NCBI RefSeq assembly: GCF_000024465.1
Contig: NC_014010.1
Coordinates: 930,001-994,000 of the forward strand
DNA: 64,000 nt
Reading direction: 5' to 3'
DNA from: Candidatus Puniceispirillum marinum IMCC1322
GTDB taxonomy: Bacteria > Pseudomonadota > Alphaproteobacteria > Puniceispirillales > Puniceispirillaceae
Position 1 is the stretch's first letter; each line of letters starts with the position of its first letter. A model generated the notes under the pieces. It saw only the letters and a list, made by a program, of their open reading frames with translations, was not told the DNA's origin and searched no databases. The translations under genes and the position numbers were made by a program. This document shows, in pieces, positions 38,368 through 53,728 of this stretch.

Positions 38368-39438
38368 ATGATTGTTTTTGATCAGGCTATTGGTAATGAT
38401 CAAACCATGGGACAAAAACCAAAACATAATCGGTTTGAAGATATCGCCCGACATGCGGGTGTTGGCACCGCAACCGTTGACCGCGTATTGAACGAACGCG
38501 GCGGCGTTAGCGTCAAAACCATGAAAAAGGTGCTGTATAGCGCCCGCACATTGGGAACACGGCGCGTTTTACCCGAAATTGACCAGCGTACATTGCGGAT
38601 CGAAGCGGTGCTGGCACGCAAACATTCGGCCTATTATGACCGGCTGGCAAAAGCCTTTCAGATGGCGGCTAGCTTTGCGAATGTTCCGGTGACTGTCTAT
38701 CGGACGCATATCGATGATGATGCCCCCGACAAGCTGGCGGCGCATGTGCGTGATGTTGCCAGCTATCGGGACGGGATCATCATCTATGGCAACAACCACC
38801 CCAATGTGGCCGCGCAGATCAGTGCGCTGGCACATCAGGTGCCTGTTCTGACCATCAGCACCGACATTCTGCACAGCAACCGGCATTCGCATGTTGGCAT
38901 TAATGACATTGGCGCAGGTCAGTCAGCCGCCAAATTATGCGAGGCCATTTGCCGCGGCGGTGGGCAGGTGCTGGTCATTGCCCCAGAAAAGCACGCCCAG
39001 TCCTTGCAAGACCGGTTTGGCGGCTTTACCGAGTTTTTCAACGTTATGGGAAAGCGCGATCAATTGGTCATTATCAAACGCGAACCAATTCTTGATCACA
39101 CCTTGTCGAAAATACGTAACATCGTGCGTCAAAACCCGAATATCAGAGCACTCTATTCGACAACAAATGACGATATGCTGGAAATGCTATTCAAAAGCCT
39201 GCAAAGCGATACGCAGAATTTTGACTTTGTGAAAATCGTCCATGATCTTGATAAGGAAACCATCACCCATTTGCGATCAGGTCTGATTGATATCGTAATC
39301 GATTCAAATCCGGCGCGTCAGGTTCTGCGCGCTATTGAAATCATCTCGGCGCATCATGGCATGGCAACCGAAAGCATAAGTGAGCTGGTTGATTTCCAGA
39401 TTTTCACTTCGGACAACATTCCCGAAAGTTATTTTTAA
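38368..39438 (+). CDS. LacI-type transcriptional regulator with periplasmic-binding-protein domain
   Basis: 356 aa from ATG 38368 (AGGCAGAAA upstream); an ATG at 38407 is the alternative. The HTH is RFEDIARHAGVGTATVDRVLNERGGVS, followed by a sugar-binding-type domain (type I periplasmic fold: HVGINDIGAGQSAAKLCEAICRGGGQVLVI and NPARQVLRAIEII). Divergent from the DmdA-like gene and upstream of the long catabolic array. It most likely represses one or both until a pathway compound binds. Confidence 0.85.
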   Translation: MIVFDQAIGNDQTMGQKPKHNRFEDIARHAGVGTATVDRVLNERGGVSVKTMKKVLYSARTLGTRRVLPEIDQRTLRIEAVLARKHSAYYDRLAKAFQMAASFANVPVTVYRTHIDDDAPDKLAAHVRDVASYRDGIIIYGNNHPNVAAQISALAHQVPVLTISTDILHSNRHSHVGINDIGAGQSAAKLCEAICRGGGQVLVIAPEKHAQSLQDRFGGFTEFFNVMGKRDQLVIIKREPILDHTLSKIRNIVRQNPNIRALYSTTNDDMLEMLFKSLQSDTQNFDFVKIVHDLDKETITHLRSGLIDIVIDSNPARQVLRAIEIISAHHGMATESISELVDFQIFTSDNIPESYF

Positions 39439-39745
39439 GCATCATCCGGCTAGAGTGACGCGAAAGCCGAAAGATGATCACGGGATTAAAGCATCATCCG
39501 GCTAGAGCGACGCGAAAGCCGAAAGATGACCGCGGGATTTAAGCATCATCCGGCTAGAGCGGCGCGAAAGCCGAAAGATGATCGCGGAATTTAAGCATCA
39601 TCCGGCTAGAGCGACGCGAAAGCCGAAAGATGACCGCGGGATTAAAGCATCATCCGGCTAGAGCGACGCGAAAGCCGAAAGATGATCGCGGGATTAAAGC
39701 ATCATCCGGCTAGAGCGACGCGAAAGCCGAAAGATGATCGCGGCA
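39439..39745 (+). repeat. Six tandem copies of a 52-bp hairpin-forming repeat
   Basis: Units start at 39439, 39491, 39543, 39595, 39647 and 39699, spaced exactly 52 bp; the last is cut after about 47 bases. Copies differ at a few positions (for example GATGATC/GATGACC, CGACGCG/TGACGCG/GGCGCG). Each unit can pair ATCATC-CGGCT with AGCCG-AAA-GATGAT around a 13-base loop. Period 52 is not a multiple of 3, so this is not a coding repeat. It fills most of the 400-base gap between the LacI-type regulator and the next gene; 39746-39838 shows no further feature. Confidence 0.95.
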
Positions 39746-39838
39746 AACAAGCCTTATCATATGATGTTTTTTGATCAATTTTTGACTGTCTTATTCGCCC
39801 TAGTTATTGCTTTGCTGATCGCTATGGGGAGTAACGAT

Positions 39839-40633
39839 ATGAGACCTGACAAAACCGAACTTGCGGCGCTGGCAGACCTGCTTGCCAACACATGGCCAGA
39901 CCCGTCAAAGCCCGTAGCATTAAAGCCGCACCAGTTTCCGCAAAACCGCTTTGAGGCCTATTTTGTGCAGGATCGCATGTTCGACGCGCTGAATGAAAGT
40001 CTGGCCGGGTGGAAAGTGGGGGCGACCAGCGCCCAGATGCGGGCATTGGATGGACATGATGATATCATTCCCGGGCGCATTGCGTCATCAACATGCTATG
40101 TCGGCACGCATATGACATTACCGATTGCCCGCTTTCCAAATGCACGTGTTGAAACCGAATTTGCATTCCGCCTGACGGAAACGCCAGAGCTGCGCAAAAC
40201 ACCATGGCGCGCCGAGGATATGGCCGAGATCATGACATTGCATCCCGCCATTGAAATTATCGGCAACCGCTATCAGGTCGAAGGCGCCAGCAAAGCACAA
40301 AATTCACTGCTGACAATCGCTGATAATGGCGGCGGCATGGCGTTTGTGTTTGGCGACCCGGTTGATGACTGGCAGGATCTGGATTTTCAGCATCATAACA
40401 TCACCTTGCGCGTTGACGACAAGGCAGCTGCGGAAAATTTCCTTGGTGATATGCGCTGTGTGCCAGCACAAGCCGCCGCCGATCTGGTCAATCATCTGGC
40501 AAGCCGTAATATTTCAATGCAGGCAGACGACTTTCTTTCAACCGGTGCGGCAACCGTGCCGCAACCTTTTGTGGCTGGCAGCACAGTGCATGCTGATTTT
40601 GGCACGCTGGGCGTGATCGAGTTGACATTTTAG
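39839..40633 (+). CDS. 2-keto-4-pentenoate hydratase-like protein (MhpD/FAH-like fold)
   Basis: 264 aa from ATG 39839, where GGGGAG precedes the start; the open frame continues back to 39734 into the repeat array. Motifs of the hydratase family: GWKVGATSAQMRALDG, VETEFAFRL (metal-binding E-x-E), HPAIEIIGNRY, TIADNGGGMAFVFGDP, STGAATVPQPFVAGSTVHADFGTLGVIELTF. Known members hydrate dienols after meta-cleavage of aromatics or act as decarboxylases. It heads a co-oriented array of catabolic genes. Confidence 0.8.
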   Translation: MRPDKTELAALADLLANTWPDPSKPVALKPHQFPQNRFEAYFVQDRMFDALNESLAGWKVGATSAQMRALDGHDDIIPGRIASSTCYVGTHMTLPIARFPNARVETEFAFRLTETPELRKTPWRAEDMAEIMTLHPAIEIIGNRYQVEGASKAQNSLLTIADNGGGMAFVFGDPVDDWQDLDFQHHNITLRVDDKAAAENFLGDMRCVPAQAAADLVNHLASRNISMQADDFLSTGAATVPQPFVAGSTVHADFGTLGVIELTF

Positions 40634-40660
40634 AAAGTGCATAACGTGACTGATACGGTA

Positions 40661-41110
40661 ATGGCAGATATTCTGGTTCTGAACGGTCCCAATCTTAATA
40701 TGCTGGGCACGCGTGAGCCGCATATCTATGGCCACATGACATTGGACGAAATCGAAACCGCAAGTCGCAAAAAAGCCGATAGTCTGGGGCTTTCATTGGA
40801 TTGGTTTCAGTCAAATAGCGAAAGCGCCCTGATCACCCGACTACAACAGGCCAGCCAGAATAGACGTGCCATTATCATTAATGCTGCCGCCTATACACAT
40901 ACATCCTATGCGGTGCGCGACGCGCTGGCCTTATTTGACGGCCCCAAGGTCGAAGTGCATTTATCAAAGAATTTCAATCGCGAGTCCTTTCGCCAGATCA
41001 GCACCATCTCGCCTATATGCGATGGCACGATCGTGGGCTTTGGCTTCCATTCGTATCTGCTAGGCATTCAGGCGATAGAATCATTACTTAACCCAGAATC
41101 AAAGAGGTAA
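40661..41110 (+). CDS. aroQ: Type II 3-dehydroquinate dehydratase
   Basis: 149 aa, the expected length. Opening ILVLNGPNLNMLGTREPHIYG with the catalytic Tyr in HIYG, then DWFQSNSESALITRLQ, INAAAYTHTSYAVRDAL, VEVHLSKNFNRESFRQISTISPICDGTIVGFGFHSYLLGI with catalytic His and the lid arginine. The ATG at 40661 fits the family; a GTG frame reaches 40637. It interconverts 3-dehydroquinate and 3-dehydroshikimate. In a catabolic array this suggests quinate/shikimate use rather than, or as well as, aromatic amino-acid synthesis. Confidence 0.92.
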   Translation: MADILVLNGPNLNMLGTREPHIYGHMTLDEIETASRKKADSLGLSLDWFQSNSESALITRLQQASQNRRAIIINAAAYTHTSYAVRDALALFDGPKVEVHLSKNFNRESFRQISTISPICDGTIVGFGFHSYLLGIQAIESLLNPESKR

Positions 41111-41112
41111 AC

Positions 41113-42057
41113 ATGACTCCAGTATATTCAAACATAATGGTGATGGGTGCAGGTGGCATGGGCGCCTTGTTCGGCATGATTCTGGATGAAGGCGGCATGA
41201 ATGTAACGCTGGTCGATAGTGATACAGCACATGTGGCGGCGATCCAGAAAGACGGATTGAAGGTTTCGGGCCTTGGCGGCGAACGGAGCCGCATTATGGA
41301 TGCCGTGACCTCACCCGACGACATTACCGATATCGATATCGTGCTGGTGCAATGCAAAGGCACAGCCACCAGAGCCGCCGCCGAAAGCATGAAACATCTG
41401 GCAAAGCAGAACGCCATATTCATCAGCTTCCAGAATGGGCTGGGAAATGAGGATATTCTTGCTGAGGTTCTGGGGCCTGAAAATGTGCTTGGCGGTCTGA
41501 CATCAATGGCTGGTGCAAAGCTGGGCTTAGGCCATATTCAGGATTTTGACCGCGTGCCAACATATATCGGCGAAATGGAGGGCGGCATATCGGCACGGGT
41601 CGAAGCGATTGCCAAAGCTTTGAGTGCCGCCGGACTGGAAACCAAACCAAGCGCAGATATCACTGCCGATATCTGGAAAAAACTGATTGGCAATCTGTCC
41701 ATGAGCGCAGTCTCGGGTATCACCAATCTGACCAGTACCGAGATTCTCTCTGTCGAAAGCTTAAAGAATCTATGCTACCGTGCGCTTGACGAAGCGATTA
41801 GCATCGCCAAATCGCAGAATGTAAATCTGGATAAGGATGAAGTCATCGCAGGGTTGCAAATAATGACCCAGCCAGGGGGAACCGGCGACAATAAATCGTC
41901 GTTATGTCTCGACATTCTTGCCCAACGGCAAAGCGAGATTGAATTTATTTATGGTCGTCCGTTGGCGCTGGCCAAACAAGCCAATCTGAATGTACCAACC
42001 TTGCAGACATTATATGGCCTAGTTAAAGGCATCGAAACACATTACGTGAAGGGATAG
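41113..42057 (+). CDS. Ketopantoate reductase (PanE/ApbA)-family protein
   Basis: 314 aa, NADPH-dependent reductase fold. GAGGMGALFGMILDEGGMNVTLVDSD (residues 12-37) binds the nucleotide; FQNGLGNEDILAEVLG and ADITADIWKKLIGNLSMSAVSGITNLTSTEI carry the usual Asn, Lys and Asn of the catalytic region. AGAGGTAAAC precedes the ATG. Starts 2 bases after aroQ, so clearly in the operon. Because of that context it may act on a pathway keto acid rather than ketopantoate. Confidence 0.85.
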   Translation: MTPVYSNIMVMGAGGMGALFGMILDEGGMNVTLVDSDTAHVAAIQKDGLKVSGLGGERSRIMDAVTSPDDITDIDIVLVQCKGTATRAAAESMKHLAKQNAIFISFQNGLGNEDILAEVLGPENVLGGLTSMAGAKLGLGHIQDFDRVPTYIGEMEGGISARVEAIAKALSAAGLETKPSADITADIWKKLIGNLSMSAVSGITNLTSTEILSVESLKNLCYRALDEAISIAKSQNVNLDKDEVIAGLQIMTQPGGTGDNKSSLCLDILAQRQSEIEFIYGRPLALAKQANLNVPTLQTLYGLVKGIETHYVKG

Positions 42058-42063
42058 AATATT

Positions 42064-42867
42064 ATGCAATCTGATAACGGACAGCCAGCTTCCGATACAT
42101 CACTGGCAGGCAAGACAGCTATCATCACAGGCGGGTCACGCGGCATCGGGATGGCGATTGCCAAGAGACTGGCCGCCAGTGGTGCCCATATCATGATTCT
42201 GGGATCAAACGCCGAACATCTGGCACAGGCTAAGGCCAGCATAGCGGGAACGGTGGCGACGCACGCCGCCGATCTGCGGACATTGGCAGGATGTGAAAGC
42301 GCCTTTGCCGCCTTTCAATCGCATTATGAAAAATGTGATATTTTCGTGCATAGTGCTGGCGCGACCAAAGGCGGGGTGTTTCCCGCCCAGCCTGATGACG
42401 ATTTCATCGACGGGTTTGCGCTGAAATTCCATGCTGGCGTGCGCTTGTCACGGCTGTTCTGGCCGATGCTGAAAGCGGCGCATGGCACCGCCATCATGAT
42501 TATTGGGGGGGCATCAAGAACGCCTGATGCCAGCTTTATGGTTGGCGGTGCGGTCAATGCGGCACTGGCCAACTATACCAAGGCGCTTGCCGGACAAGGC
42601 AATATGGATGATGTCAATGTCAACTGGATCAATCCGGGGCAGACCGAAACCGAGCGCTTGCAAATGTTGCTGGAAACACGCGCCCGCGACGAAGGCAAAA
42701 CAGTCGATGATGTACGCGCCGAACGGATGCAGGGCGAAGGTATCCGCCGACTTGGCCAGCCTGATGATGTCGCCAGTCTGGTGCATTATCTGTGTCAGGA
42801 CGAAGCCCGCCATATTCAAGGTACGGGCATTAGTGTCGATGGTGGTGCCACGAAGGGTTACTTCTGA
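42064..42867 (+). CDS. Short-chain dehydrogenase/reductase (SDR)
   Basis: 267 aa. Cofactor motif TGGSRGIGMAIAKRLAASG near residue 19, HSAGATKGG near 95. The catalytic region is atypical: the usual YxxxK is read as NYTKALAGQG (SFMVGGAVNAALANYTKAL), with no clear Tyr-x3-Lys. C-terminal GTGISVDGGATKG. The stop TGA overlaps the next ATG (TGATG). A dehydrogenase or a non-canonical SDR in the catabolic array. Confidence 0.82.
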   Translation: MQSDNGQPASDTSLAGKTAIITGGSRGIGMAIAKRLAASGAHIMILGSNAEHLAQAKASIAGTVATHAADLRTLAGCESAFAAFQSHYEKCDIFVHSAGATKGGVFPAQPDDDFIDGFALKFHAGVRLSRLFWPMLKAAHGTAIMIIGGASRTPDASFMVGGAVNAALANYTKALAGQGNMDDVNVNWINPGQTETERLQMLLETRARDEGKTVDDVRAERMQGEGIRRLGQPDDVASLVHYLCQDEARHIQGTGISVDGGATKGYF

Positions 42868-44036
42868 TGCAATTTGCGCTGGATGATCAGCAACGGCTTC
42901 TGGTGCGGACAATCCGCGATTTTGTGAAACGCGAATTGATGCCGCTTGAAGATAGGGTCGAGGCAGATGGGTTTCTGGCTGATGATATTGCCGCCGAGAT
43001 ACAGCAGAAATCGCGCGATCTGGGGCTATATGCGGTCAATATACCAACCGCATATGGCGGCGGTGGTTTGTCGGTTTTTGACTGGATGCTGGCCGAAGAA
43101 CAATATGGCTATACCAGCGATATTCTGATCCGGCGCGCCTTTGGTAATGTCTATGAAATCCTGCTTGAAGGGAATGCCGAACAGATCGAGACCTATCTTT
43201 TGCCGACTGTGCGTGGCGAGCGCACCTGTTCGGTCGCCTTTACCGAACCTGCCGCCGGGTCGGACGCCGCCAGTATCAAGACACGCGCTGTGCGTGATGG
43301 CGATGACTGGATTTTGAACGGAGCCAAACATTTCATTTCAGACGGGCTTTATTCGGACTTTTTTGTCGTGACGGCGGTGACTGACCCCGATGCCGGATAT
43401 AACGGCATTTCCACCTTTATCGTCGAAAAAGGCATGTCCGGATTCAATGTTGGCCGCGATCAGCCAATGATGGGATTGCGTGGCACCTCGCATGTTGAAA
43501 TGAGCTTTGACGATGTACGGTTATCGCAAGCTCATCTGCTGGGCCCCGAAGGCAAAGGGTTGAAAATGGCTTTGTCGACTTTAGGGCGGGTCAGGCTGGC
43601 ACAGGTGGCTGCACGCGCAACCGGCAAGGCCACGCATATCATGGATTTGATGCTGGAACATGCCCGCGAGCGCAAACAATTTGGCGCCCAGATCGGCACC
43701 TTTCAGATGGTTCAGCAGATGCTGGCAGACTCGGCTATGGACATTAACGCGACTCGGCTGGCCTTATGGCAGACCGCCAGCCGGATTGATAATGGTGAAG
43801 ATCCACGCGCCAATATTTCGATGCTGAAAGTGCAGGCCGCCGAAATGCTGGGGCATGTGGTAGATCGCGCCGTACAGATTTTTGGCGGCATGGGCTATTG
43901 CCGCGATCTGCCGATTGAACGCTATTACCGTGATGCCCGTATTTACCGGATTTATGACGGCGCATCGGAAATTCATCGGGTGGTCATGGCCAAGAGCCTG
44001 ATGAAAGGCGACACATCCCTTTACAGCGTTGAATAG
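42867..44036 (+). CDS. Acyl-CoA dehydrogenase
   Basis: FAD-dependent acyl-CoA dehydrogenase, 389 aa. N-terminal helical domain; CSVAFTEPAAGSDAASIKTRAVRDGDDWILNGAKHFISDG (FAD/substrate region, residues 112-152); GLRGTSHVEMSFDDVR; ERKQFGAQIGTFQMVQQMLADSAM; FGGMGYCRDLPIERYYRDARIYRIYDGASEIHRVVMA. The YDGASEIH motif has Asp where many family members have the catalytic Glu, as in ACAD10/11-like proteins. Translationally coupled to the SDR upstream. Confidence 0.92.
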   Translation: MQFALDDQQRLLVRTIRDFVKRELMPLEDRVEADGFLADDIAAEIQQKSRDLGLYAVNIPTAYGGGGLSVFDWMLAEEQYGYTSDILIRRAFGNVYEILLEGNAEQIETYLLPTVRGERTCSVAFTEPAAGSDAASIKTRAVRDGDDWILNGAKHFISDGLYSDFFVVTAVTDPDAGYNGISTFIVEKGMSGFNVGRDQPMMGLRGTSHVEMSFDDVRLSQAHLLGPEGKGLKMALSTLGRVRLAQVAARATGKATHIMDLMLEHARERKQFGAQIGTFQMVQQMLADSAMDINATRLALWQTASRIDNGEDPRANISMLKVQAAEMLGHVVDRAVQIFGGMGYCRDLPIERYYRDARIYRIYDGASEIHRVVMAKSLMKGDTSLYSVE

Positions 44037-44078
44037 GCAGACAGCACTATATGATGAAAGCTAGAACGGAATTGAATA

Positions 44079-45614
44079 ATGAGTGATGATAAATTCATTT
44101 CGGCAGATCAGGCCGCTGATCTGATCTCCGACAATGCCACAATCGGTCTGATTGGCGGCGGCGGCGGGCTGGTCGAAGCAACAAGCCTGCACGCGGCAGT
44201 CGAGAGACGTTTTCTGGACTCAGGCCATCCACGCGGGCTGACCTGTATTCATGCGCTTGGCATCGGTGATCGCGACAGCCGCGGTATGAACCGCTTTGCG
44301 CATAAGGACATGACCCGCCGCGTGATTGGCGGCCATTGGGTCTGGTCGCCACGAATGCAGGAGATGGCGCGGCATAACGAGATTGAAGCCTATGTTCTGC
44401 CTGGTGGCGTGATGATGCAATTAATGCGGGAAGTGGCCGCCGGACGCCCGGGATTGATTACGCATGTCGGGCTTGGCACCTTTGTTGACCCCCGGCTTGA
44501 TGGCGGGCGCATGAATAGCGCTGCCACAGATAAACTGGTCGAAGTCATGACTATCGACGGCAAAGATTATCTGCGCTATCTGCCAATACCCGTTGATGTG
44601 GCATTGTTGCGCGGGTCTGTCGCCGATGAAGATGGCAATATCTCGCTAGAAGAAGAACCTGCCAATCTGGATATCTATGCGATGGCAGCCGCCGCACATA
44701 ATAGTGGCGGCAAGGTCATTTTTCAGGTCAAACGCAAAGTCGTCCGCGGCAGTCTGCCAGCGCGTGAAGTGCGGATTCCGTCAGCGCTGGTCGATGCGGT
44801 GGTGATCGATTCCGGACAAAGACAGGGCTATGAGCTGGTCTATGACGCGGCTGTATCAGGCCAGAAAGTCAACCCCAACGTTCCCCGCGATATGCCCGCC
44901 TTTTCGGCACGCATGGTGATTGCACGGCGCGCGCGCACCGAACTGCATGATGGGGCGGTGGTAAATTACGGTTTCGGCATTCCCGATCAGGTGGCCAAAA
45001 TTGTTGCCGCCGAACATGCCGAAGGACGCTATTATCAGACCATCGAGCATGGCACCTATGGCGGTACCTTGTTGGATGGTGATCTGTTTGGCTATGCGCT
45101 TAATCCCAGCTCTATGATTGATGGCCCGTCACAATTTGATTTCTATTCGGGTGGGGGGCTGGATATCGCCTTTCTTGGCTTTGGTGAAATTGATGCGCAT
45201 GGCAATGTTAATGTATCGAAACTGGCTGGTAATACGGTGGGGCCAGGCGGCTTTATCGATATCGCGCAAAATGCGGCAAAGGTCGTGTTCTGCGGTACCT
45301 TTGATACAGGTGGTGCCAAACTGGCCGTTGGCGATGGCACTTTATCGGTGATCACTCCGGGCAGGATCGGCAAATTCAAACAGGATGTTGACCAGATCAC
45401 CTTTTCCGGATCACAGGCTTTGCGCCAGAAACAGGATATCCTGTATGTCACCGAACGGGCGGTTTTCAAACTGACCGCAGCTGGCATATGCCTGATTGAG
45501 ATTGCGCCCGGTATCGATCTGCAAGAAAATATTCTGGACAAAATGGCATTCACACCACTTATCGCCGATGATCTAAAAATCATGGATTCATCATTTTTTA
45601 CGGAGACTTTGTAA
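44079..45614 (+). CDS. Acyl-CoA:carboxylate CoA-transferase (YdiF/propionate CoA-transferase type)
   Basis: Single-chain class I CoA-transferase with alpha and beta domains fused, 511 aa. N-terminal domain starts SADQAADLISDNATIGLIGGGGGLVEATSLHAAVERRF; the C-terminal domain begins RRARTELHDGAVVNYGFGIPDQV, with the probable catalytic Glu in QTIEHGTYGG (about residue 323). Moves CoA from an acyl-CoA donor to a carboxylic acid and so can activate the acid substrate of the neighbouring acyl-CoA dehydrogenase without ATP. Stop overlaps the next start (TAATG). Confidence 0.9.
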   Translation: MSDDKFISADQAADLISDNATIGLIGGGGGLVEATSLHAAVERRFLDSGHPRGLTCIHALGIGDRDSRGMNRFAHKDMTRRVIGGHWVWSPRMQEMARHNEIEAYVLPGGVMMQLMREVAAGRPGLITHVGLGTFVDPRLDGGRMNSAATDKLVEVMTIDGKDYLRYLPIPVDVALLRGSVADEDGNISLEEEPANLDIYAMAAAAHNSGGKVIFQVKRKVVRGSLPAREVRIPSALVDAVVIDSGQRQGYELVYDAAVSGQKVNPNVPRDMPAFSARMVIARRARTELHDGAVVNYGFGIPDQVAKIVAAEHAEGRYYQTIEHGTYGGTLLDGDLFGYALNPSSMIDGPSQFDFYSGGGLDIAFLGFGEIDAHGNVNVSKLAGNTVGPGGFIDIAQNAAKVVFCGTFDTGGAKLAVGDGTLSVITPGRIGKFKQDVDQITFSGSQALRQKQDILYVTERAVFKLTAAGICLIEIAPGIDLQENILDKMAFTPLIADDLKIMDSSFFTETL

Positions 45615-46654: not shown

Positions 46655-46696
46655 CGATCAATGAAGGATAATGACCATGCGAGGGGAAAGATAGCA

Positions 46697-47128
46697 ATGG
46701 ATGATTTCTATGTAAAAATTGGTGATGAGTCACGCTTTACCAAAACGGTATCTGAAAGCGATGTCTATATGTTTGCTGGTATCACAGGTGATTTTTCACC
46801 TAACCATGTCAATAAATCCTATATGGAAAAATCATCCTATGGCCGGTTGATGGCGCATGGTGCCTTGATGGTTGGCTTCATGTCCACCGTATCGACGATG
46901 GTCATTGCCCATTGCCGCGACGCCGATGAAACACCAGTGTCGGTCGGCTATGACAAGATACGCTTTCTTAAGCCGGTTTTCCTTGGCGATACAGTGTCGC
47001 TGGTTTACCGTATTTCATCGATCGACACGACCCGCCGACGGTCAGTCGGTGATATCGAAATCACCAATCAGGATGACGAGCTGGTTGCTGTTGGCAATCA
47101 TATTTTGCAATGGGTACCAAATAGCTAG
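46697..47128 (+). CDS. MaoC-like (R)-specific enoyl-CoA hydratase
   Basis: Hot-dog fold hydratase, 143 aa from ATG 46697 (GAGGGG upstream; a frame from 46661 has no site). The hydratase-2 motif is intact: FAGITGDFSPNHVNKSYMEKSSYGRLMAHGALMVGFMS with catalytic D and H. It can hydrate the double bond made by the acyl-CoA dehydrogenase in the same array. Confidence 0.88.
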   Translation: MDDFYVKIGDESRFTKTVSESDVYMFAGITGDFSPNHVNKSYMEKSSYGRLMAHGALMVGFMSTVSTMVIAHCRDADETPVSVGYDKIRFLKPVFLGDTVSLVYRISSIDTTRRRSVGDIEITNQDDELVAVGNHILQWVPNS

Positions 47129-47150: not shown

Positions 47151-47888
47151 ATGGAACGCCTGCTTGACCTATCAGGACAGACATTCATCGTGACGGGTGC
47201 TGCCCGTGGAATCGGGCTGGCGATCAGCACTTATTTTCACAGCCTAGGCGCCCGGGTCTGTGGCTGGGATCTGGATGATGCCGGTATGCAAGGCAATCCG
47301 GTTTTTGCCGACTACCAGATTGCCGATGTCAGCAATGAAGCCAGTGTCGCCACTGCCTTTGCCGCCAGCATGGCCGCGATGGGTGATGTTGACGGTATCG
47401 TCGCTAATGCCGGTATCAACGGGCCAACCAAGCCGTTATGGGACTATTCGCTGGATGAATGGCAACAGGTGATCGATATCGACCTGACCGGCGTGTTTTT
47501 GTCGGTACAACCGGTACTCAGGCACCTGCTGGCCAAAGGCAAAGGCCGGATTATTGTGATGTCATCAGTCGCTGGCAAAGAGGGCAATCCGGGGGCGGTC
47601 CCCTATGGCGCGGCAAAAGCCGGCCTGGTCGGCTATGTCAAAGGGCTGGCTCGTGAAGTCTTGCCCTCTGAAATCACGGTAAATTGTATCGCACCAGTGA
47701 TCACCGAAACCGATTTGCTGACTGGCATGTCGGCTGATTATATCAGTGACAAGAAAAGCCGGATTCCGATGGGCCGGTTTTGCACACCGCAAGAAGTCGC
47801 CACGATGGCCGCCTGGATTGCCTCGCCGCAATGTAGCTTCACCACCGGCCAGATTTTCGATGTCACCGGCGGGCGGGCAACATGGTAA
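47151..47888 (+). CDS. Short-chain dehydrogenase/reductase (SDR), classical
   Basis: 245 aa. TGAARGIGLAISTYFHSLGA cofactor motif, VANAGINGP, catalytic Ser in VMSSVAGKEGNPGAVPYGAAKAGLVGYVKGLAREV with YxxxK (Y-G-A-A-K), and a C-terminal FDVTGGRATW. Intact, unlike the other SDR at 42064. It probably oxidises the hydroxyacyl-CoA or hydroxy-ring intermediate. 22 bases after maoC-like. Confidence 0.88.
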   Translation: MERLLDLSGQTFIVTGAARGIGLAISTYFHSLGARVCGWDLDDAGMQGNPVFADYQIADVSNEASVATAFAASMAAMGDVDGIVANAGINGPTKPLWDYSLDEWQQVIDIDLTGVFLSVQPVLRHLLAKGKGRIIVMSSVAGKEGNPGAVPYGAAKAGLVGYVKGLAREVLPSEITVNCIAPVITETDLLTGMSADYISDKKSRIPMGRFCTPQEVATMAAWIASPQCSFTTGQIFDVTGGRATW

Positions 47889-47892
47889 TGCT

Positions 47893-48699
47893 ATGCGCAC
47901 GCTGACAAAGGCTGATCTCTGTATTCATCAGGTCTGTCTGGTTGAGCAATGTGACTTTGCCTCATCACTGGATGTGCTGGCACGTAATCAGATTGGCAAG
48001 ACCGCTGTGTGGCGGCCGATGCTCGAGGCTGTTGGCACGAAGACCGCCAGAAAAATGCTTGATGATAGTGGTGTGCAGGCGCACGCCCTATGCGCGTTGG
48101 AACTTTTGAAAGGTATTGAGGATGGCACCCGCATGCTGGATATCGCCGCCAGCATCGGTGCCAAAAGCGTGGTCGCCATCACCGGTGGCTTTGATGCCGA
48201 TAACACAACATTGGCAGATGCGCGTCACAATGCCATAGATATGCTGGCCAAGCTGTTGCCGATTGCCCAATCTTACAACATCACCATCGCGCTGGAACCT
48301 CTGCATCCAATGGTCTGTGGTTTGCGATCGGTGATTAGCAGCCTGCGTGAGGCTAATGATATACTCGATCAGCTAGACAGCTCAGATAATGTTGGAATCG
48401 CGCTGGATAGCTATGCGGTCTGGTGGGAGCCCGACCTAATGACGCAGATCAGCCGCGCCGGTAATCGCATCGTCAATTATCATGTTGCCGACTGGTTAGC
48501 CGAAACCAGAGATATAAGACTGGATCGGGGTATGCCAGGTGAAGGAATCATTGCATTACCTGCATTAAGAGACGCTGTGGAAGCGACTGGCTTTACCGGC
48601 CCTGTCGAAGTTGAAATTTTTTCAACCCTCACATGGTGGCAAGCCGAACCACAACACGTCGTTGACGAAATTCTGGCGCGCATAAACAGGTACTTCTGA
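47893..48699 (+). CDS. Xylose-isomerase-like TIM-barrel protein (isomerase/epimerase or 3-dehydroshikimate dehydratase-like)
   Basis: 268 aa from ATG 47893; the longer frame from 47746 is inside the SDR gene. Metal ligands are seen in ITIALEPLHPM (Glu), GIALDSYAVWW (Asp), NYHVADW (His) and VEVEIFS (Glu), the AP-endonuclease-2 fold. Distinctive start CIHQVCLVEQCDFASSLDVLARNQIGKTAVWRPMLEAVG. Proteins of this fold include 3-dehydroshikimate dehydratase (QuiC/AsbF-like), which would link AroQ to protocatechuate, but sugar isomerases share it, so function is not settled. Confidence 0.72.
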   Translation: MRTLTKADLCIHQVCLVEQCDFASSLDVLARNQIGKTAVWRPMLEAVGTKTARKMLDDSGVQAHALCALELLKGIEDGTRMLDIAASIGAKSVVAITGGFDADNTTLADARHNAIDMLAKLLPIAQSYNITIALEPLHPMVCGLRSVISSLREANDILDQLDSSDNVGIALDSYAVWWEPDLMTQISRAGNRIVNYHVADWLAETRDIRLDRGMPGEGIIALPALRDAVEATGFTGPVEVEIFSTLTWWQAEPQHVVDEILARINRYF

Positions 48700-48746
48700 T
48701 TAGATCAACAAAGATCAATTCGTAAAATGATGGTTTTCAATCAATT

Positions 48747-48776
48747 TTGACATTTAGATTGGCACATAAGCTATGT
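48747..48776 (+). promoter_or_regulatory. Possible sigma70-type promoter for the liv operon
   Basis: TTGACA at 48747-48752 (exact -35) with an imperfect -10 (CTATGT, 48771-48776) 18 bases later, in the 129-base gap before livF. The -10 match is weak. Confidence 0.35.
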
Positions 48777-48828
48777 CGCGCCAAAATAAAAATGATAAGA
48801 TTTTTGAGTGATAATTAGGGAGTAAACC

Positions 48829-49566: not shown

Positions 49567-49586
49567 AGCTAGGGAACATAAATATC

Positions 49587-50498
49587 ATGGACTTCGATTA
49601 TAATTCTCTGATGGCTTTCATCATTTTTGGCGTGACGATAGGTGTTGTTTACGGCATCGTCGCATTAGGTATATCCCTGATTTATTCAGGTCTGGACATT
49701 GTACATTTTGCGCATGGTGAAATGTATATGTTCGGAGCGTTTTTTGGCCTGGTGTTGGCAAATAATGTCGGGCTTCCCTATCCAGTTGCGTTAATCGGCG
49801 CGATGATAATGACGGCGTGTCTGGGCATGTTTGTCGAACGCGTGTTCTATCGACGCCTGACAAGTGCTGGCGGCGGCTATACCGTGGCCGGCATGGGCAT
49901 GATTATCTGTGGTTTTGGCATGTCTGTCGCCTTGGTCAATGTCGCTTATTTCATCTGGGGTGCCGAGGCTGAGCCATTCCGTGCCAATCTTGATTATATC
50001 CCACGTCTGCAATTTGCCGGTGATATCGAAGTTCCCGAAAGCTATGTTTTAACCGCGATCATTTCGGTTGTTCTGATGGCGGCGCTGCATTACTTCCTGC
50101 GCCACACCAAGACAGGTCTGGCGGTGCGGGCTGTCGCACATAATAAAGACATCGCTTATCTGATGGGCATCAATGTACCGTTGATGATTTCACTGATCTT
50201 TGGTCTGTCATGCGCATTGGCAGCTGCGGCCGGGGTGTTGATCGGGCCGATGCAGTCAGTTCAGGTCGAGATGGGCTATCTGATGTTGATGAAGGCTTTT
50301 GCCGCGGCGGTTGTTGGCGGCTTTGGGTCACTGCCGGGGGCAATCCTTGGCGGTATCATGGTTGGTATTTTCGAAAATCTTGGGGCGGCATATATATCGC
50401 CAAGCCATAAAGATATTTACGCATTTTTGCTTTTAATTCTTGTACTTATGTTCCGCCCGTCGGGACTGTTTGGAATTGAAGCAAAAGTAAAGGCATAG
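49587..50498 (+). CDS. livH: Liv-type ABC transporter permease LivH
   Basis: 303-aa membrane permease with about eight helices. GVVYGIVALGISLIYSGLDIVHFAHGEMYMFGAFFGLVLA at the start is the LivH signature. FAAAVVGGFGSLPGAILGGIMVGIFENLGAAYISPSHKD is the conserved C-terminal loop. 20 bases after livF. Confidence 0.88.
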   Translation: MDFDYNSLMAFIIFGVTIGVVYGIVALGISLIYSGLDIVHFAHGEMYMFGAFFGLVLANNVGLPYPVALIGAMIMTACLGMFVERVFYRRLTSAGGGYTVAGMGMIICGFGMSVALVNVAYFIWGAEAEPFRANLDYIPRLQFAGDIEVPESYVLTAIISVVLMAALHYFLRHTKTGLAVRAVAHNKDIAYLMGINVPLMISLIFGLSCALAAAAGVLIGPMQSVQVEMGYLMLMKAFAAAVVGGFGSLPGAILGGIMVGIFENLGAAYISPSHKDIYAFLLLILVLMFRPSGLFGIEAKVKA

Positions 50499-50569
50499 CG
50501 AACGGTAAAAATTTCGCGCTACGCTACTAAAGAAGGCAAAATGTAATAATTGCTAAAATGGAGGAGAAG

Positions 50570-51775
50570 ATGAATATCATGAAATCAACCTTTGCTAGCT
50601 TACTTGTCGGGGGTGTAGCCCTTGCCAGTACGGCAGCATTTGCAGGTGACATCCGCGTTGGTATCACAATGCGTATGGTCAGTGAAAATGGTCAGAAATA
50701 CGGCCAGATGATGATGGATGAAATCAAATCCATCAATGATTCTGGTGGTATCAATGGCAATATGATTAAAGCCACTTTGATGAATGACGAATGTAAGTCA
50801 GACAAAGGTGTCGCCAACGCCAACAAGCTTATTTTCCAGGAAAAGGTTCATATGCTTATCGGTTCGACCTGTTCGTCAGTGTCTTTGCCGATTGTTGACG
50901 TAACCGCCAAAGCCGGCGTTGCCCAGCTGATCCCGCATTCAACAAATGCAAAAATCACCCAGAAGGGCAGTGAGTGGGTCTTCCGCATTCCTGTATCTGG
51001 TCGTTATTACGGTGGTGTGAACGCCAAATATGTTGGTGACAACATTGGTAAAAAGATCGCCTATATCTGTGCGGCTGATGCGGCTTCGGTCAATGACTGT
51101 GCTGCCATGCAGGGTCAGATCAAAAAGCAGTTTGGTGCCGATCCAGCCTATATTGCCAATGTGCAGGAAAAAGAAGTCGATTTCCGTTCACATATGCAGA
51201 AAATCAAGTCAATGAATGTTGACGGTATCATGGTTGCGGCTTTGGCTGAGACAATGGCACGTGCGCTTATGCAGTCATATGAAGCAGGTATCGGCGATGA
51301 TGTTCGCCGTATCGGTTCATCATCAGCATCTAACGCACCTGTGCCACGGATTGCTGGCGATGCTGTCAAAGGCGTGTTCTTTACAGCGGCCTATGCCGCA
51401 GCTGATCAGCGCCCAATTGCCAAGCTGTTCAACGCAATGGTTAAAGACAAATATGGCATCCACGCACCTGACCATGATTTCTCGCAGGCATATGACCTCG
51501 TGCGGATCATGGAACAGGCTCTGAACAGTGCGGATTTGAACCTGGACAGTGCCTCACTTGAAGCTGACCGTACAGCCATTCGTGATGCGATTGCTGGCGT
51601 GAAGAACTATGAAGGTCTGGCATCAGGCCCAATCAGCTTCTGTGCGGCCGCAACACCTCAGTGCCGTGACGGTAACAGAACAGCCGTTCTGATCGGTTAC
51701 ACAAAGGGTGGCGAAAACTTTGAAACCGAAGTTCTTGCCCGTGTGACCATGCCTATCGATTTTGGCCTTGAATAG
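50570..51775 (+). CDS. livK: Liv-type ABC transporter substrate-binding protein
   Basis: Periplasmic type I binding protein, 401 aa from ATG 50570 (GGAGGAGAAG directly upstream; ATG 50558 is before the site). Signal peptide MNIMKSTFASLLVGGVALASTAAFA, cut before GDIRVG. The mature protein begins RVGITMRMVSENGQKYGQMMMDEIKSINDSGGINGN; cysteines at CKSDK, CSSVSLP, CAADAASVNDCAAM and FCAAATPQC could form disulfides. Followed by a hairpin before livM, consistent with its needing higher expression. Confidence 0.88.
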   Translation: MNIMKSTFASLLVGGVALASTAAFAGDIRVGITMRMVSENGQKYGQMMMDEIKSINDSGGINGNMIKATLMNDECKSDKGVANANKLIFQEKVHMLIGSTCSSVSLPIVDVTAKAGVAQLIPHSTNAKITQKGSEWVFRIPVSGRYYGGVNAKYVGDNIGKKIAYICAADAASVNDCAAMQGQIKKQFGADPAYIANVQEKEVDFRSHMQKIKSMNVDGIMVAALAETMARALMQSYEAGIGDDVRRIGSSSASNAPVPRIAGDAVKGVFFTAAYAAADQRPIAKLFNAMVKDKYGIHAPDHDFSQAYDLVRIMEQALNSADLNLDSASLEADRTAIRDAIAGVKNYEGLASGPISFCAAATPQCRDGNRTAVLIGYTKGGENFETEVLARVTMPIDFGLE

Positions 51776-51793
51776 GTCATAGCCCACCTTTTG

Positions 51794-51826
51794 AAGCTGG
51801 GGCAGATTTCCCTGCTCCAGCTTTTC
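51794..51826 (+). terminator. Intra-operon hairpin between livK and livM
   Basis: AAGCTGGGGCAG (51794-51805) pairs with CTGCTCCAGCTT (51812-51823), one G-T pair, 6-base loop, followed by TTCTTCCCC. Probably an attenuator that lowers livMG relative to livK. Confidence 0.65.
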
Positions 51827-51855
51827 TTCCCCCTGAGATATGGACAATTAAACAG

Positions 51856-52944
51856 ATGAATATCTTTGTTTTAATTATTGAAAAATTTGTTGCATTGGGT
51901 GAGTCATTAGCTCGCAAACACCGGCTTTTGCCGTGGCTACTTGCCTATATTGCGCTCCTGCCCTTGCCCTTTATTTTATCATTTTTATTTAGTGAGTATC
52001 TGATTAATCTGGCTAATCGTGCCTGTCTGTTCATTCTGCTGGCGGTTGGTCTGAATATCGTTAAAGGCTTTTGTGGTCAGGTAACGGTTGGCCATATCGG
52101 TCTTTATGCGATTGGTGCCGTGACCTCGGCGATTTTGGCCTTAGAGCCTGGTAGCTTTGGCGACACATGGGGCTTTGGCCTGTCAGTATGGGTCGCTATC
52201 CCGATTGCGGTTCTGGTCACGGCGCTGGCTGGCGTTATCGTTGGTCTGCCATCGGTACGGCTTGAAGGAGCGTATCTGGCACTGGCCACGCTTGGCCTTG
52301 GCGAGTCTGTGCGGATCATGATTGCGGTCACACCACAATTGGGATCTAGCACCGGATTGATGATGATCCCGCCACCATCTGTTGGCGGCTTCGCTTTCGA
52401 AAGCTTCACCAGCTATTATTATCTGGTAATGACCGCCGCCGTTATCGGCATCTATTTTTCTTTTGCCATTTTGCGTTCGGCAACTGGCCGCGCCTTTCAG
52501 GCGATACGCGAAGATACCATCGCCGCGTCAGTCAATGGTATCAATGTGGTGAAATATAAGCTACTTGCCTTTGTGCTGAGCGCGGTTTATGCCGGTCTGG
52601 CTGGAGCCTTATTTGCGCATATGCCACCAGGCTATCTGCACCATAATAATTTCACCATCATCGAAATGGTCACGCTGTTGTTGATGGTCGTGCTTGGCGG
52701 TATTGGCAATGTATGGGGCGGCGTCATTGGTGCAATCGTCGTCACCATTGCCTATGATCAGACCAAGGATCTGGTGTTCTATTTCATGGATCGTCCGATC
52801 ATCATCCAGCCGATTGTGTTTGGCCTGAGCATGGTGCTGCTGGTTCTGTTCATGCCACGCGGTATTGGTGGCTGGATCGAAGGTTTCCAGCGCAACCGTC
52901 GCTTTATCAAACAAAGTGAGGAGCGCTTAGATGGCACTGCTTGA
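51856..52944 (+). CDS. livM: Liv-type ABC transporter permease LivM
   Basis: 362-aa membrane permease. FCGQVTVGHIGLYAIGAVTSAILA near residue 75 and IREDTIAASVNGINVVKYKLLAFVLSAVYAGLAGALFAHMPPGYLHHNNFTIIEMVTLLLMVVLGGIGNVWG are the conserved blocks. Overlaps livG by 14 bases. Confidence 0.88.
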   Translation: MNIFVLIIEKFVALGESLARKHRLLPWLLAYIALLPLPFILSFLFSEYLINLANRACLFILLAVGLNIVKGFCGQVTVGHIGLYAIGAVTSAILALEPGSFGDTWGFGLSVWVAIPIAVLVTALAGVIVGLPSVRLEGAYLALATLGLGESVRIMIAVTPQLGSSTGLMMIPPPSVGGFAFESFTSYYYLVMTAAVIGIYFSFAILRSATGRAFQAIREDTIAASVNGINVVKYKLLAFVLSAVYAGLAGALFAHMPPGYLHHNNFTIIEMVTLLLMVVLGGIGNVWGGVIGAIVVTIAYDQTKDLVFYFMDRPIIIQPIVFGLSMVLLVLFMPRGIGGWIEGFQRNRRFIKQSEERLDGTA

Positions 52945-53728
52945 AACGCGTAATCTGAGCAAAAGTTTTGGCGGCTTGCAGGCAATCAATGATGTCAGCC
53001 TGAAAGTAGAGCCCAATACGGTGCATGGTCTGATCGGGCCGAATGGCTCGGGCAAATCGACCTTTTTCAATCTGCTGACAGGTGTGTATCAGCCAGATGC
53101 CGGAAGCTATATCGAATTTAATGGTATCGATATCACCAATAAACCCGCGCATTATATTGCCGAACAGGGGCTGTCACGTACGTTTCAGCTTTTGCGTCTT
53201 TATGGCGAATTGAGCGTGCTTGATAATGTTATGGTTGGCTATCATCCACATACCAAATACAGCCCGCTAGCGCCCTTTTTCAAAGGGGCCGAAGTGCGCC
53301 GTCAGGATGCCATTGTCCGCGATGAAATGATGGAATTGCTGGAATTTATCGGACTGGCAGAACATGCGGAAATTCCGGCAGCCGAACTATCTGGTGGCCA
53401 GCGTCGTTTGCTGGCTCTGGGGCGGGCGATTGCCACCCGGCCTAAATTGCTGTTGCTGGACGAACCAGGCGCGGGCCTGTCACCCGTCAATGTCGATAAT
53501 CTGATGGCGACGATCATGACGCTGAAAGAACGCTATAACCTGACTATTGTCGTGGTTGAGCATATTCTGAAAGTTGTGATGAATACCTGTGAAACGGTAA
53601 GCGTCCTTGACCATGGCCAGAAAATCTCGGAAGGCACGCCTGAATTCGTGAAGAATGATCCGGCGGTGGTCGAAGCCTATCTGGGACGTGAAATGGCCGA
53701 CGAGGAAATCCGCGCCGCGATGGGGTGA
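52931..53728 (+). CDS. livG: Liv-type ABC transporter ATPase LivG
   Basis: 265 aa. Walker A GPNGSGKSTFFNLLTGVY, LSRTFQLLRLYGELSVLDNVMVGYH, signature LSGGQRRLLALGRAIA, Walker B LLLDEPGAGLSP, switch VVEHILKVVMN. Last gene of the transporter; partner of LivF. Confidence 0.88.
   Translation: MALLETRNLSKSFGGLQAINDVSLKVEPNTVHGLIGPNGSGKSTFFNLLTGVYQPDAGSYIEFNGIDITNKPAHYIAEQGLSRTFQLLRLYGELSVLDNVMVGYHPHTKYSPLAPFFKGAEVRRQDAIVRDEMMELLEFIGLAEHAEIPAAELSGGQRRLLALGRAIATRPKLLLLDEPGAGLSPVNVDNLMATIMTLKERYNLTIVVVEHILKVVMNTCETVSVLDHGQKISEGTPEFVKNDPAVVEAYLGREMADEEIRAAMG

What the first reader, a model, noticed from the sequence alone, without database searches (positions are those of the whole stretch)
38368..53728. 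Long co-oriented catabolic array with its own Liv-type importer, mixing ring-polyol and CoA-thioester chemistry
Seen: a LacI-type regulator, then hydratase-like, aroQ, PanE-like, SDR, acyl-CoA dehydrogenase, CoA-transferase, Gfo/Idh, MaoC hydratase, SDR, TIM-barrel protein and livFHKMG, all on one strand with several overlapping stops and starts. Known: CoA-transferase, acyl-CoA dehydrogenase, MaoC and SDR together form a beta-oxidation-like sequence; AroQ, Gfo/Idh and TIM-barrel proteins act on cyclitol or quinate-like rings. Inferred: the array may degrade a hydroxylated cyclic carboxylic acid by a route I do not recognise as a described pathway. This is the best candidate for an undescribed system in the window.
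Basis: partly seen in the sequence, partly recalled or inferred. Interest (0 to 1): 0.65.

Follow-up and report, generated by a model that had tools for sequence, protein, structure and literature searches.

The report
Undescribed ring-acid degradation gene cluster
A marine bacterium carries a conserved set of sixteen genes that probably imports and breaks down sugar-like ring acids related to quinate and shikimate by first attaching them to coenzyme A, a route we found no description of, and related sets occur in many ocean and soil bacteria.

Summary
Sixteen co-oriented genes (LacI, hydratase, AroQ, PanE, SDR, acyl-CoA dehydrogenase, CoA-transferase, Gfo/Idh, MaoC, SDR, TIM barrel, LivFHKMG) lie at 38.4-53.7 kb. 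Four fetched relatives keep all sixteen in order; a distant member of the class keeps fifteen, rearranged.

Of 80 loci with a close CoA-transferase, 44 carry AroQ, the unrelated AroD, an AroE-type protein or a 3-dehydroshikimate dehydratase; 0 of 21 loci with distant CoA-transferases do. But 20 of the 35 loci with most core genes show none. AroQ here is a second copy with conserved active-site residues. Protocatechuate 4,5-cleavage genes follow in the window. LivK has Ser where leucine-binding protein has Glu226. The dehydrogenase's presumed base is Asp, not Glu, in 48 of 48 relatives. The first SDR lacks YxxxK; its nearest solved relative is AerF.

Best reading: a CoA-thioester branch of quinate/shikimate-type (hydroaromatic) acid catabolism. 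Substrate, step order and ring-opening step are not shown. Searches of the open library found no description. The relative YdiF lies in E. coli's ydiB-aroD-ydiF-ydiO cluster, whose enzymes are mostly 'putative'.

The parts
38407..39438 (+). LacI-type regulator (mechanical ORF from 38329)
   Evidence: Pfam PF00356 and PF13407; 43-49% identical LacI genes in the SAR116-family loci, first gene where the array is complete
39437..39743 (.). 52-bp tandem repeat, 5.9 copies, between regulator and first enzyme gene; role unknown
   Evidence: TRF; all 6 matches of its pattern in the genome lie here
39824..40633 (+). 2-oxo-enoate hydratase/decarboxylase superfamily protein (HpaH-like)
   Evidence: NCBIfam HpaH 59.5 bits, below its cut-off of 351.5; no Pfam hit; PDB 2eb4 E 2e-10
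40661..41110 (+). AroQ2, second type II 3-dehydroquinate dehydratase
   Evidence: TIGR01088 178.7 bits over cut-off; the other copy is at G000:1100076 beside an accB-like gene; recalled catalytic columns invariant in 9 sequences
41113..42057 (+). PanE-like 2-oxo/2-hydroxy acid oxidoreductase
   Evidence: TIGR00745 224.9 bits over cut-off
42064..42867 (+). SDR1, SDR without the YxxxK motif, AerF-like
   Evidence: motif absent in 28 of 28 rows, window included; nearest solved 6jh7 130 bits, next 95; 6jha titled AerF
42867..44036 (+). acyl-CoA dehydrogenase with Asp364 as presumed catalytic base
   Evidence: Asp in 48 of 48 locus proteins and the window; Glu in the five nearest solved enzymes; best NCBIfam model acryloyl-CoA reductase 284 bits, cut-off 640
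44079..45614 (+). CoAT, fused family I CoA-transferase (YdiF type)
   Evidence: PDB 2ahu YdiF E 2e-131, the only hit at 1e-20; Glu323 invariant in 8 of 8; best NCBIfam model FadX 401.7 bits, cut-off 750
45614..46654 (+). Gfo/Idh/MocA dehydrogenase; candidate quinate/shikimate-type ring alcohol dehydrogenase
   Evidence: PF01408; 61% ortholog at the end of a dehydroshikimate dehydratase-plus-lig gene set in G395
46661..47128 (+). MaoC-type enoyl-CoA hydratase
   Evidence: PF01575; 68-86% identical in the array's relatives
47151..47888 (+). SDR2, FabG-like 3-hydroxyacyl dehydrogenase with YxxxK
   Evidence: NCBIfam FabG models up to 208 bits, under cut-off; motif
47893..48699 (+). TIM-barrel (AP_endonuc_2) isomerase/dehydratase-like protein
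   Evidence: PF01261; 28% to the TIM half of the fused dehydratase of L051
48829..49566 (+). LivF-type ATPase
49587..50498 (+). LivH-type permease
50558..51775 (+). LivK-type binding protein, Ser255 where leucine-binding protein has Glu226
   Evidence: 17 of 17 rows, window included
51856..52944 (+). LivM-type permease
52931..53728 (+). LivG-type ATPase
54033..55304 (+). MFS transporter
55308..56219 (-). LysR regulator beside the lig genes
   Evidence: LysR next to lig genes also in L051 and L060
56301..56711 (+). LigA, protocatechuate 4,5-dioxygenase alpha
   Evidence: TIGR02792 over cut-off
56704..57546 (+). LigB, class III extradiol dioxygenase beta
   Evidence: NF009903 415 bits over cut-off; PF02900
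57571..58527 (+). LigC-like Gfo/Idh dehydrogenase
   Evidence: position and Gfo/Idh family; 74% beside lig genes of L051 and L060
58527..59651 (+). 4-oxalomesaconate tautomerase-like
   Evidence: NF033377 427.9 bits, just under its cut-off of 440
59650..60558 (+). LigI-like lactonase
   Evidence: 4-sulfomuconolactone hydrolase model 253.9 bits, cut-off 500; 85% in L051
60585..61595 (+). LigJ-like hydratase (name from position and recall; no NCBIfam hit at 1e-15)
   Evidence: 83% among the lig genes of L051

Best explanation
The array is a catabolic operon for a hydroaromatic acid: a saturated or unsaturated cyclohexane carboxylic acid with ring hydroxyls, of the quinate/shikimate/dihydroshikimate type. 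LivFGHMK imports it. The YdiF-type CoA-transferase (CoAT) loads it with CoA from another acyl-CoA. The Asp-base acyl-CoA dehydrogenase then desaturates the ring next to the thioester, for example dihydroshikimoyl-CoA to shikimoyl-CoA. MaoC (with an enoyl-CoA hydratase in some relatives), SDR2, the AerF-like SDR1 and Gfo/Idh adjust ring hydroxyls, ketones and double bonds. AroQ2 interconverts 3-dehydroquinate and 3-dehydroshikimate. A 3-dehydroshikimate dehydratase, elsewhere in this genome and next to the cluster in some relatives, makes protocatechuate, which the Lig-type genes downstream cleave. The HpaH-like hydratase and PanE hint at a second, ring-opening exit through a 2-oxo-enoic acid. 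Shown here: gene content, conservation, association with dehydroquinate/dehydroshikimate genes, and active-site features. Inferred: substrate, order of steps, direction of each enzyme and the ring-opening step. I put the substrate class at about 0.6 and this exact order at about 0.2.
For: Conservation: all 16 genes in the same order in L052, L056, L059 and L060; 15 of 16 rearranged in G200, where Gfo is only 34% identical; at least 4 of 7 core enzyme genes in 35 of 80 loci. Substrate class: 44 of 80 close loci carry AroQ (18), AroD (5), an AroE-type protein (28) or the fused dehydroshikimate dehydratase (7), against 0 of 20 loci of distant CoA-transferases and one more distant locus, L050, also without. 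Fisher p 1.6e-6; after collapsing at 80% identity 14 of 26 against 0 of 17, p 1.5e-4. AroQ and AroD are unrelated proteins with one activity, so the shared feature is the reaction. AroQ2 is extra to the AroQ near the accB-like gene and keeps the recalled catalytic columns. The genome has the fused dehydratase at 57% identity and LigAB downstream, and no intradiol dioxygenase. LivK Ser255 in 17 of 17. ACAD Asp in 48 of 48. SDR1 nearest solved relative AerF; that AerF is an ene-reductase on a cyclohexenone is recalled.
Against: 36 of 80 close loci have none of the four marker genes within the DNA held, and 20 of the 35 loci richest in core genes are among them; some are cut by contig ends, but L088, L095 and L098 for example hold long stretches. 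Eight of the 15 core loci that do have a marker are the SAR116-type arrays with their own AroQ, so outside them the full array is tied to the markers less often. Two distant CoA-transferases outside the control set do have markers (Enterococcus 47%; E. coli YdiF 42%), so the association is not confined to the close clade. AroE is present once only in the genome, away from the array. No ring hydrolase or thiolase lies in the array, and the enoyl-CoA hydratase of some relatives has no ortholog in this genome. If quinate simply goes to protocatechuate, CoA activation is not needed. The best curated model for ACAD is acryloyl-CoA reductase and for CoAT FadX of fatty-acid degradation, both under cut-off. 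Gfo occurs without the array in 3 of 11 fetched family neighbourhoods. After collapsing at 70% identity only 3 of 5 against 0 of 16 remains, p 0.0075.
Confidence: 0.55

Rival explanations
1. The ring is never made aromatic: after CoA loading, desaturation, hydration and oxidation to a 2-oxo acyl-CoA, the C1-C2 bond is cut hydrolytically, giving a trihydroxypimelyl-CoA-like chain that is dehydrated to 4-hydroxy-2-oxoheptanedioate-type 2-oxo acids handled by the HpaH-like hydratase and PanE, then by an aldolase.
For: The hydratase is a member of the 2-oxo-enoate hydratase/decarboxylase superfamily; MaoC and SDR2 are core members, and an enoyl-CoA hydratase ortholog is present in 16 of 80 loci, 12 of the 35 core loci; 20 of 35 core loci show no AroQ, AroD, AroE or dehydratase yet keep the CoA genes.
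Against: No ring hydrolase identified; the relatives' enoyl-CoA hydratase has both glutamates of a plain hydratase (read by eye from L089; roles recalled); no aldolase in the array.
Confidence: 0.23
2. Two independent functions lie side by side: a quinate-to-protocatechuate branch (AroQ2, Gfo, lig genes) and a CoA route for an unrelated acyclic or side-chain acid, for example the phenylpropanoid half of a quinate ester.
For: CoA-transferase, ACAD, MaoC and SDR are generic beta-oxidation families; Gfo is found with lig genes alone in G395.
Against: The CoAT-ACAD pair occurs with AroE and AroD or AroQ in several distant groups; no esterase, CoA ligase or thiolase in the array; the ACAD base is Asp in 48 of 48 relatives.
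Confidence: 0.15
3. The substrate is another seven-carbon ring compound, such as a gadusol- or mycosporine-type molecule, with AroQ2 removing its tertiary hydroxyl.
For: AroQ chemistry and marine habitat fit (inference); an AroB-like fusion protein lies near CoAT in L084 (by eye).
Against: Gadusol-type rings lack the carboxylate that the CoA-transferase needs (recalled); the dehydratase and lig genes point to dehydroshikimate and protocatechuate.
Confidence: 0.03
4. An ordinary branched-chain amino acid importer with unrelated fatty-acid genes.
For: Family names alone.
Against: Strict synteny and LivK Ser255 in 17 of 17. A paper on strain IMCC1322 (PMC11813361, passages seen) says branched-chain amino acid degradation is impaired in that genome.
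Confidence: 0.02

Closest known systems
Quinate/shikimate to protocatechuate pathway (AroQ or AroD, quinate/shikimate dehydrogenase, 3-dehydroshikimate dehydratase) with protocatechuate 4,5-cleavage (Lig/Pmd)
   Same: AroQ2 in the array, fused dehydratase in the genome, LigAB and partners downstream
   Different: Adds CoA-transferase, Asp-base ACAD, MaoC, two SDRs, HpaH-like hydratase, PanE and a Liv importer; no AroE-type dehydrogenase in the window array
E. coli ydiN-ydiB-aroD-ydiF-ydiO-ydiQRST-fadK region
   Same: YdiF is the only solved relative of CoAT at 1e-20 (42%); quinate/shikimate dehydrogenase and DHQ dehydratase beside a CoA-transferase and an ACAD
   Different: YdiO is only 27% identical to the window ACAD and has Gly in place of its Asp; YdiF's place in the CoAT tree is weak (support 31); no electron-transfer genes among the 16
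Cyclohexanecarboxylate/benzoate CoA routes (bad/ali type; recalled)
   Same: Ring acyl-CoA desaturation, hydration and oxidation logic; ACAD scores 237 bits to the cyclohexane-1-carbonyl-CoA dehydrogenase model, under its cut-off of 650 and behind acryloyl-CoA reductase at 284
   Different: CoA-transferase in place of a CoA ligase, no BadI-type ring hydrolase identified, polyol-type enzymes added
AerF (aeruginosin biosynthesis SDR; function recalled)
   Same: SDR1 lacks YxxxK and shares the VNAAL stretch
   Different: 34% identity over the aligned part; catabolic context; activity not tested

Membership tests
Classical quinate/shikimate catabolism | 3-dehydroquinate dehydratase | tested here: met
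   AroQ2 over cut-off with invariant recalled catalytic columns
Classical quinate/shikimate catabolism | dedicated quinate/shikimate dehydrogenase | tested here: inconclusive
   one AroE N-domain in the genome, at 105808, outside the array; no AroE-type hit in the window; Gfo is only a candidate; AroE-type genes sit in distant relatives
Classical quinate/shikimate catabolism | 3-dehydroshikimate dehydratase | tested here: met
   fused protein 57% identical to the copy beside the lig genes of G395, at G000:2009168; its name and activity are recalled
Protocatechuate 4,5-cleavage | LigA and LigB | tested here: met
   both over curated cut-offs
YdiF-type family I CoA-transferase | full-length fused homology to YdiF with conserved Glu | tested here: met
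   residues 7-509 on 16-519; Glu323 invariant in A1; its match to YdiF Glu333 rests on offset and recall
bad/ali-type ring CoA pathway | CoA ligase for the ring acid in the gene set | tested here: not met
   no ligase among the 16 genes; CoA-transferase instead; the rest of the genome was not searched for one
bad/ali-type ring CoA pathway | 2-oxocyclohexane-carboxyl-CoA ring hydrolase | tested here: inconclusive
   window genome lacks an ortholog of the relatives' enoyl-CoA hydratase; the nearby 36138-36947 protein is 33% identical
Leu/Ile/Val binding protein | Glu226 for the ligand amino group (role recalled) | tested here: not met
   Ser255 in 17 of 17
Classical SDR | YxxxK in SDR1 | tested here: not met
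   28 of 28 rows lack it
HpaH equivalog | score over curated cut-off | tested here: not met
   59.5 against 351.5 bits
Any | enzyme activity or ligand binding | not testable with these tools
   no bench data

The most novel reading that the evidence does not exclude
A general CoA-thioester pathway for hydroxylated alicyclic acids, with its CoA-transferase clade in SAR116, SAR324, SAR202/Dehalococcoidia, marine Deltaproteobacteria and many soil Proteobacteria, opens the ring without passing through an aromatic compound and so lets ocean bacteria consume carboxyl-rich alicyclic matter. The E. coli ydi cluster would be a small relative of it, possibly run in the reductive direction.
Probability: 0.2. 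Interest if true: 0.85.

Novelty: new variant of a known kind. Interest (0 to 1): 0.6.

Why it matters
If right, the array adds a CoA-dependent entry to quinate/shikimate-type catabolism, suggests a function for a widespread CoA-transferase clade, and offers a concrete hypothesis for the E. coli ydiB-aroD-ydiF-ydiO genes, several of which are annotated only as putative. The same CoA-transferase clade occurs in ocean lineages such as SAR116, SAR324 and SAR202 (titles), where, as I recall, the fate of alicyclic carboxylic acids is an open question. The proposed steps can be tested with purified enzymes.

Tried and rejected
Considered and set aside: branched-chain amino acid import (LivK Glu lost); AroQ2 as the housekeeping enzyme (a second AroQ exists); intradiol protocatechuate cleavage (no PF00775); a type I dehydroquinate dehydratase in this genome (none). 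The upstream DMSP-demethylase-like gene was considered as part of the array and dropped: it gave no match in the 20 loci. A LacI operator was sought: TTGATCAA upstream of the hydratase is no more frequent in the window than chance (2 found, 2.62 expected; see also 107), and the promoter scan found 22 against a shuffle mean of 24.4 (terminators 29 against 20.1). One repeat unit does not fold better than shuffles (z -0.82). Structure comparison of SDR1 (model pLDDT 75.7) gave a general SDR fold with many tied rows and no sharper answer than the sequence search. An SDR1 search of plasmids gave only two 43-44% hits; the one I looked at has another context. Of ten plasmid-collection places that I opened from the CoAT search, nine had gene tables; four of the nine show a shikimate dehydrogenase or dehydroquinate dehydratase gene and five do not (33, 34, 58, 60, 61).

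The same recount showed 20 of 35 core loci without a marker gene; for that I lowered the main confidence from 0.6 to 0.55, the substrate class from 0.65 to 0.6, and raised the ring-opening rival from 0.2 to 0.23.

Paper searches found nothing; others gave listings with titles and starts of abstracts, none describing the route. For the SAR116 paper PMC12262181 and the IMCC1322 paper PMC11813361 I saw passages only; for PMC11659651 passages and sections 27 and 31. PMC8547437 was seen only as a listing.

Recalled, from no call: the genome's identity as Candidatus Puniceispirillum marinum IMCC1322 (by its length), residue roles in LBP, DHQ dehydratase, ACAD, crotonase and hydratase proteins, the Glu333 of YdiF, the function of AerF, the names of lig proteins beyond the model hits, and the name and activity of the fused dehydratase.

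Full report
WHAT IS THERE. The window is bases 930001-994000 of a single-contig genome of 2,753,527 bases; from the length I recall this as Candidatus Puniceispirillum marinum IMCC1322 (SAR116), which no call confirmed. Several stops and starts touch or overlap.

CONSERVATION. A search for Gfo in 61 genomes (own and relatives) gave 12 other same-family genomes with a match at 56% identity or more. I fetched the neighbourhoods of 11 of these 12; the twelfth, G410, lies on a 3.7 kb contig. Eight of the 11 hold the array. Four of them (L052, L056, L059, L060) have all 16 genes in the same order, and four are cut by contig ends. In three (L051, L053, L061) Gfo stands without the array. G200, a distant member of the class, has 15 of the 16 genes (no LacI; Gfo only 34% identical) in rearranged blocks on one contig. 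A scan of named genome contigs with a CoAT alignment found 200 related stretches among 223 matched; the best 80 were kept. Of these 80 loci, 35 hold at least 4 of 7 core enzyme genes (PanE, SDR1, Gfo, MaoC, SDR2, TIM, hydratase) at set identity thresholds. Record titles include SAR116, SAR324, SAR202/Dehalococcoidia, Deltaproteobacteria, Pelagibius, Silicimonas, Hyphomicrobiaceae, Aromatoleum, Bosea, Shinella and Limnohabitans. The rows are not independent; many are close kin, and some are contigs already fetched under G handles.

SUBSTRATE CLASS. In G200, G370 and G122 a gene read by eye as shikimate-dehydrogenase-type adjoins Gfo; the G200 protein is 33% identical to E. coli YdiB. On the Azoarcus KH32C plasmid the ACAD-CoAT-ETF genes lie about 14 kb from an annotated shikimate dehydrogenase and type I 3-dehydroquinate dehydratase. 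Annotated Shinella and Bosea plasmids place CoAT and MaoC with a shikimate dehydrogenase, and an Enterococcus raffinosus plasmid has CoAT (47% identical), MaoC, a ketopantoate reductase, a VOC protein and aroQ in a row. Five other annotated plasmid places from the same search show no such gene. Counting with small profiles built here, 44 of 80 close loci (1.33 Mb) carry at least one of AroQ (18), AroD (5), an AroE-type protein (28) or the fused 3-dehydroshikimate dehydratase (7). None of 20 loci of distant CoA-transferases (37-48% identical; 0.38 Mb) does, nor does a further one, L050. These 21 were fetched of 29 distant matches (under 50% identity) listed. Fisher p is 1.6e-6 for 44 of 80 against 0 of 20; after collapsing CoATs at 80% identity it is 14 of 26 against 0 of 17 (p 1.5e-4), and at 70% 3 of 5 against 0 of 16 (p 0.0075). 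AroQ and AroD are unrelated proteins with the same reaction, which is why I read this as shared chemistry. The association is weaker for the full array than for the small ACAD-CoAT loci: only 15 of the 35 core loci have a marker in the DNA held, and 8 of these 15 are SAR116-type arrays with their own AroQ. In a quick tree the 82 close CoATs, the window's and Azoarcus KH32C's among them, form one well supported group; YdiF falls outside with weak support (31), and the marker label needs 20 changes, at least 16 by starred branches.

THE WINDOW GENOME. AroQ2 is a second copy; the other lies directly upstream of a gene that looks like accB (accB read by eye). All columns that I recall as catalytic (Asn11, Arg18, Tyr23, Asn74, His80, Asp87, His100, Ser102, Arg107, Arg111) are invariant in nine sequences, the housekeeping copy included. 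The genome has no AroD, no intradiol dioxygenase, one AroE N-domain far away, and one LigB-type dioxygenase, which lies in this window at 56725-57513. The genes at 56.3-61.6 kb are LigA, LigB, a LigC-like Gfo/Idh, a 4-oxalomesaconate tautomerase-like protein, a lactonase-like protein and a LigJ-like protein; only LigA and LigB pass curated cut-offs. In G395 the same genes are preceded by the fused dehydratase and followed by a 61% ortholog of the array's Gfo, which makes Gfo a candidate ring-alcohol dehydrogenase on the way to dehydroshikimate. The fused dehydratase is in the window genome too, at 2,009,168, 57% identical and without evidently related neighbours. It lies, whole or in part, within the fetched stretch around the array or its CoAT in L044, L045, L054, L056, L059, L089, L092, L096, L109, L131 and L132.

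ACTIVE SITES. CoAT's only solved relative at 1e-20 is E. coli YdiF. Glu323 is invariant in eight sequences, at about the place of the YdiF glutamate that I recall as catalytic. ACAD has Asp364 where the five nearest solved enzymes have Glu; Asp stands in 48 of 48 locus ACADs above 50% identity and 90% coverage. [quoted passage not shown] here it is Tyr or Phe. I read the Asp as making room for a ring, which is inference; the best curated models for ACAD and CoAT, all under cut-off, are acryloyl-CoA reductase and FadX. SDR1 lacks YxxxK in 28 of 28 rows, with a conserved replacement. Its nearest solved relative is 6jh7, whose sister entry 6jha is titled AerF from Microcystis; that AerF is an ene-reductase on a ring enone is recalled. 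LivK has Ser255 where leucine-binding protein has Glu226, in 17 of 17 rows. SDR2 has Ser, Tyr and Lys in place.

A PART THAT SOME RELATIVES HAVE. An enoyl-CoA hydratase ortholog (45% or more to that of L089) is present in 16 of 80 loci, 12 of the 35 core loci, and in L044, L054 and L059; in L054 and L059 it follows LivG, and in G200 it lies about 4 kb beyond MaoC. The window genome has no ortholog; its best match, 33%, is the divergent gene at 36138-36947, upstream of the array. This may be a substitute, or the step may not be needed.

READING. I favour a CoA-thioester branch of hydroaromatic acid catabolism. The small pair CoAT plus ACAD, seen with AroE and AroD or AroQ in several distant groups, could turn a saturated acid such as dihydroshikimate into shikimate through their CoA esters, feeding dehydroshikimate and protocatechuate. 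The larger clusters add hydration, ketone and enone chemistry and possibly a ring-opening exit. Only content, conservation, association and active-site features are shown; the rest is inferred. Against it: 36 of 80 close loci and 20 of 35 core loci show no marker gene, and a plain quinate route would not need CoA.

KNOWN OR NEW. The held open library gave no paper that describes such a route (searches; listings only, apart from the passages named above); subscription papers and preprints were not searched. The parts are known families; the combination looks new. The E. coli K-12 cluster ydiN-ydiB-aroD-ydiF-ydiO-ydiQRST-fadK shows the same grouping, with putative names for many of its members; YdiF is 42% and YdiO 27% identical to the window proteins, so I call it a related arrangement, not the same system.

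Noticed in passing
window 39437-39743: A 52-bp unit repeated 5.9 times between the LacI gene and the hydratase; all 6 pattern matches in the genome lie here.
   Followed up: partly
window 37014-38168 (-): DMSP-demethylase-like GcvT-family protein, 371 bits to PRK12486 with cut-off 410, divergent to the array; no match in the 20 loci.
   Followed up: no
L084 5945-9809; also L079, L094, L120: Near CoAT in four loci lies a protein family whose L084 member looks, by eye, like a histidine phosphatase fused to a dehydroquinate synthase; in L084 it stands near a type I dehydroquinate dehydratase.
   Followed up: no
L150 8696-18479: An E. coli record has a TetR, SDR, TIM barrel, enoyl-CoA hydratase, CoA-transferase (51% to the window's), FAD protein and TRAP transporter between ytfB and rplI; substrate unknown.
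   Followed up: no
L142 5009-7633; family seen in 14 loci: A large FAD-dependent oxidoreductase-like protein (by eye) in loci with ACAD-CoAT, mostly Burkholderiales and Rhodobacteraceae-type records; a possible ring desaturase.
   Followed up: no
L084, L089, L093, L094, L105, L112, L127, L128: The MaoC gene lies on the strand opposite to CoAT in 8 loci and on the same strand in 27.
   Followed up: no
L065 2783-4571: A second TIM-barrel protein (12 loci) and a beta-hydroxyacid-dehydrogenase-like protein (14 loci), named by eye, stand side by side upstream of the regulator here; neither has a match in the window at 1e-5.
   Followed up: partly
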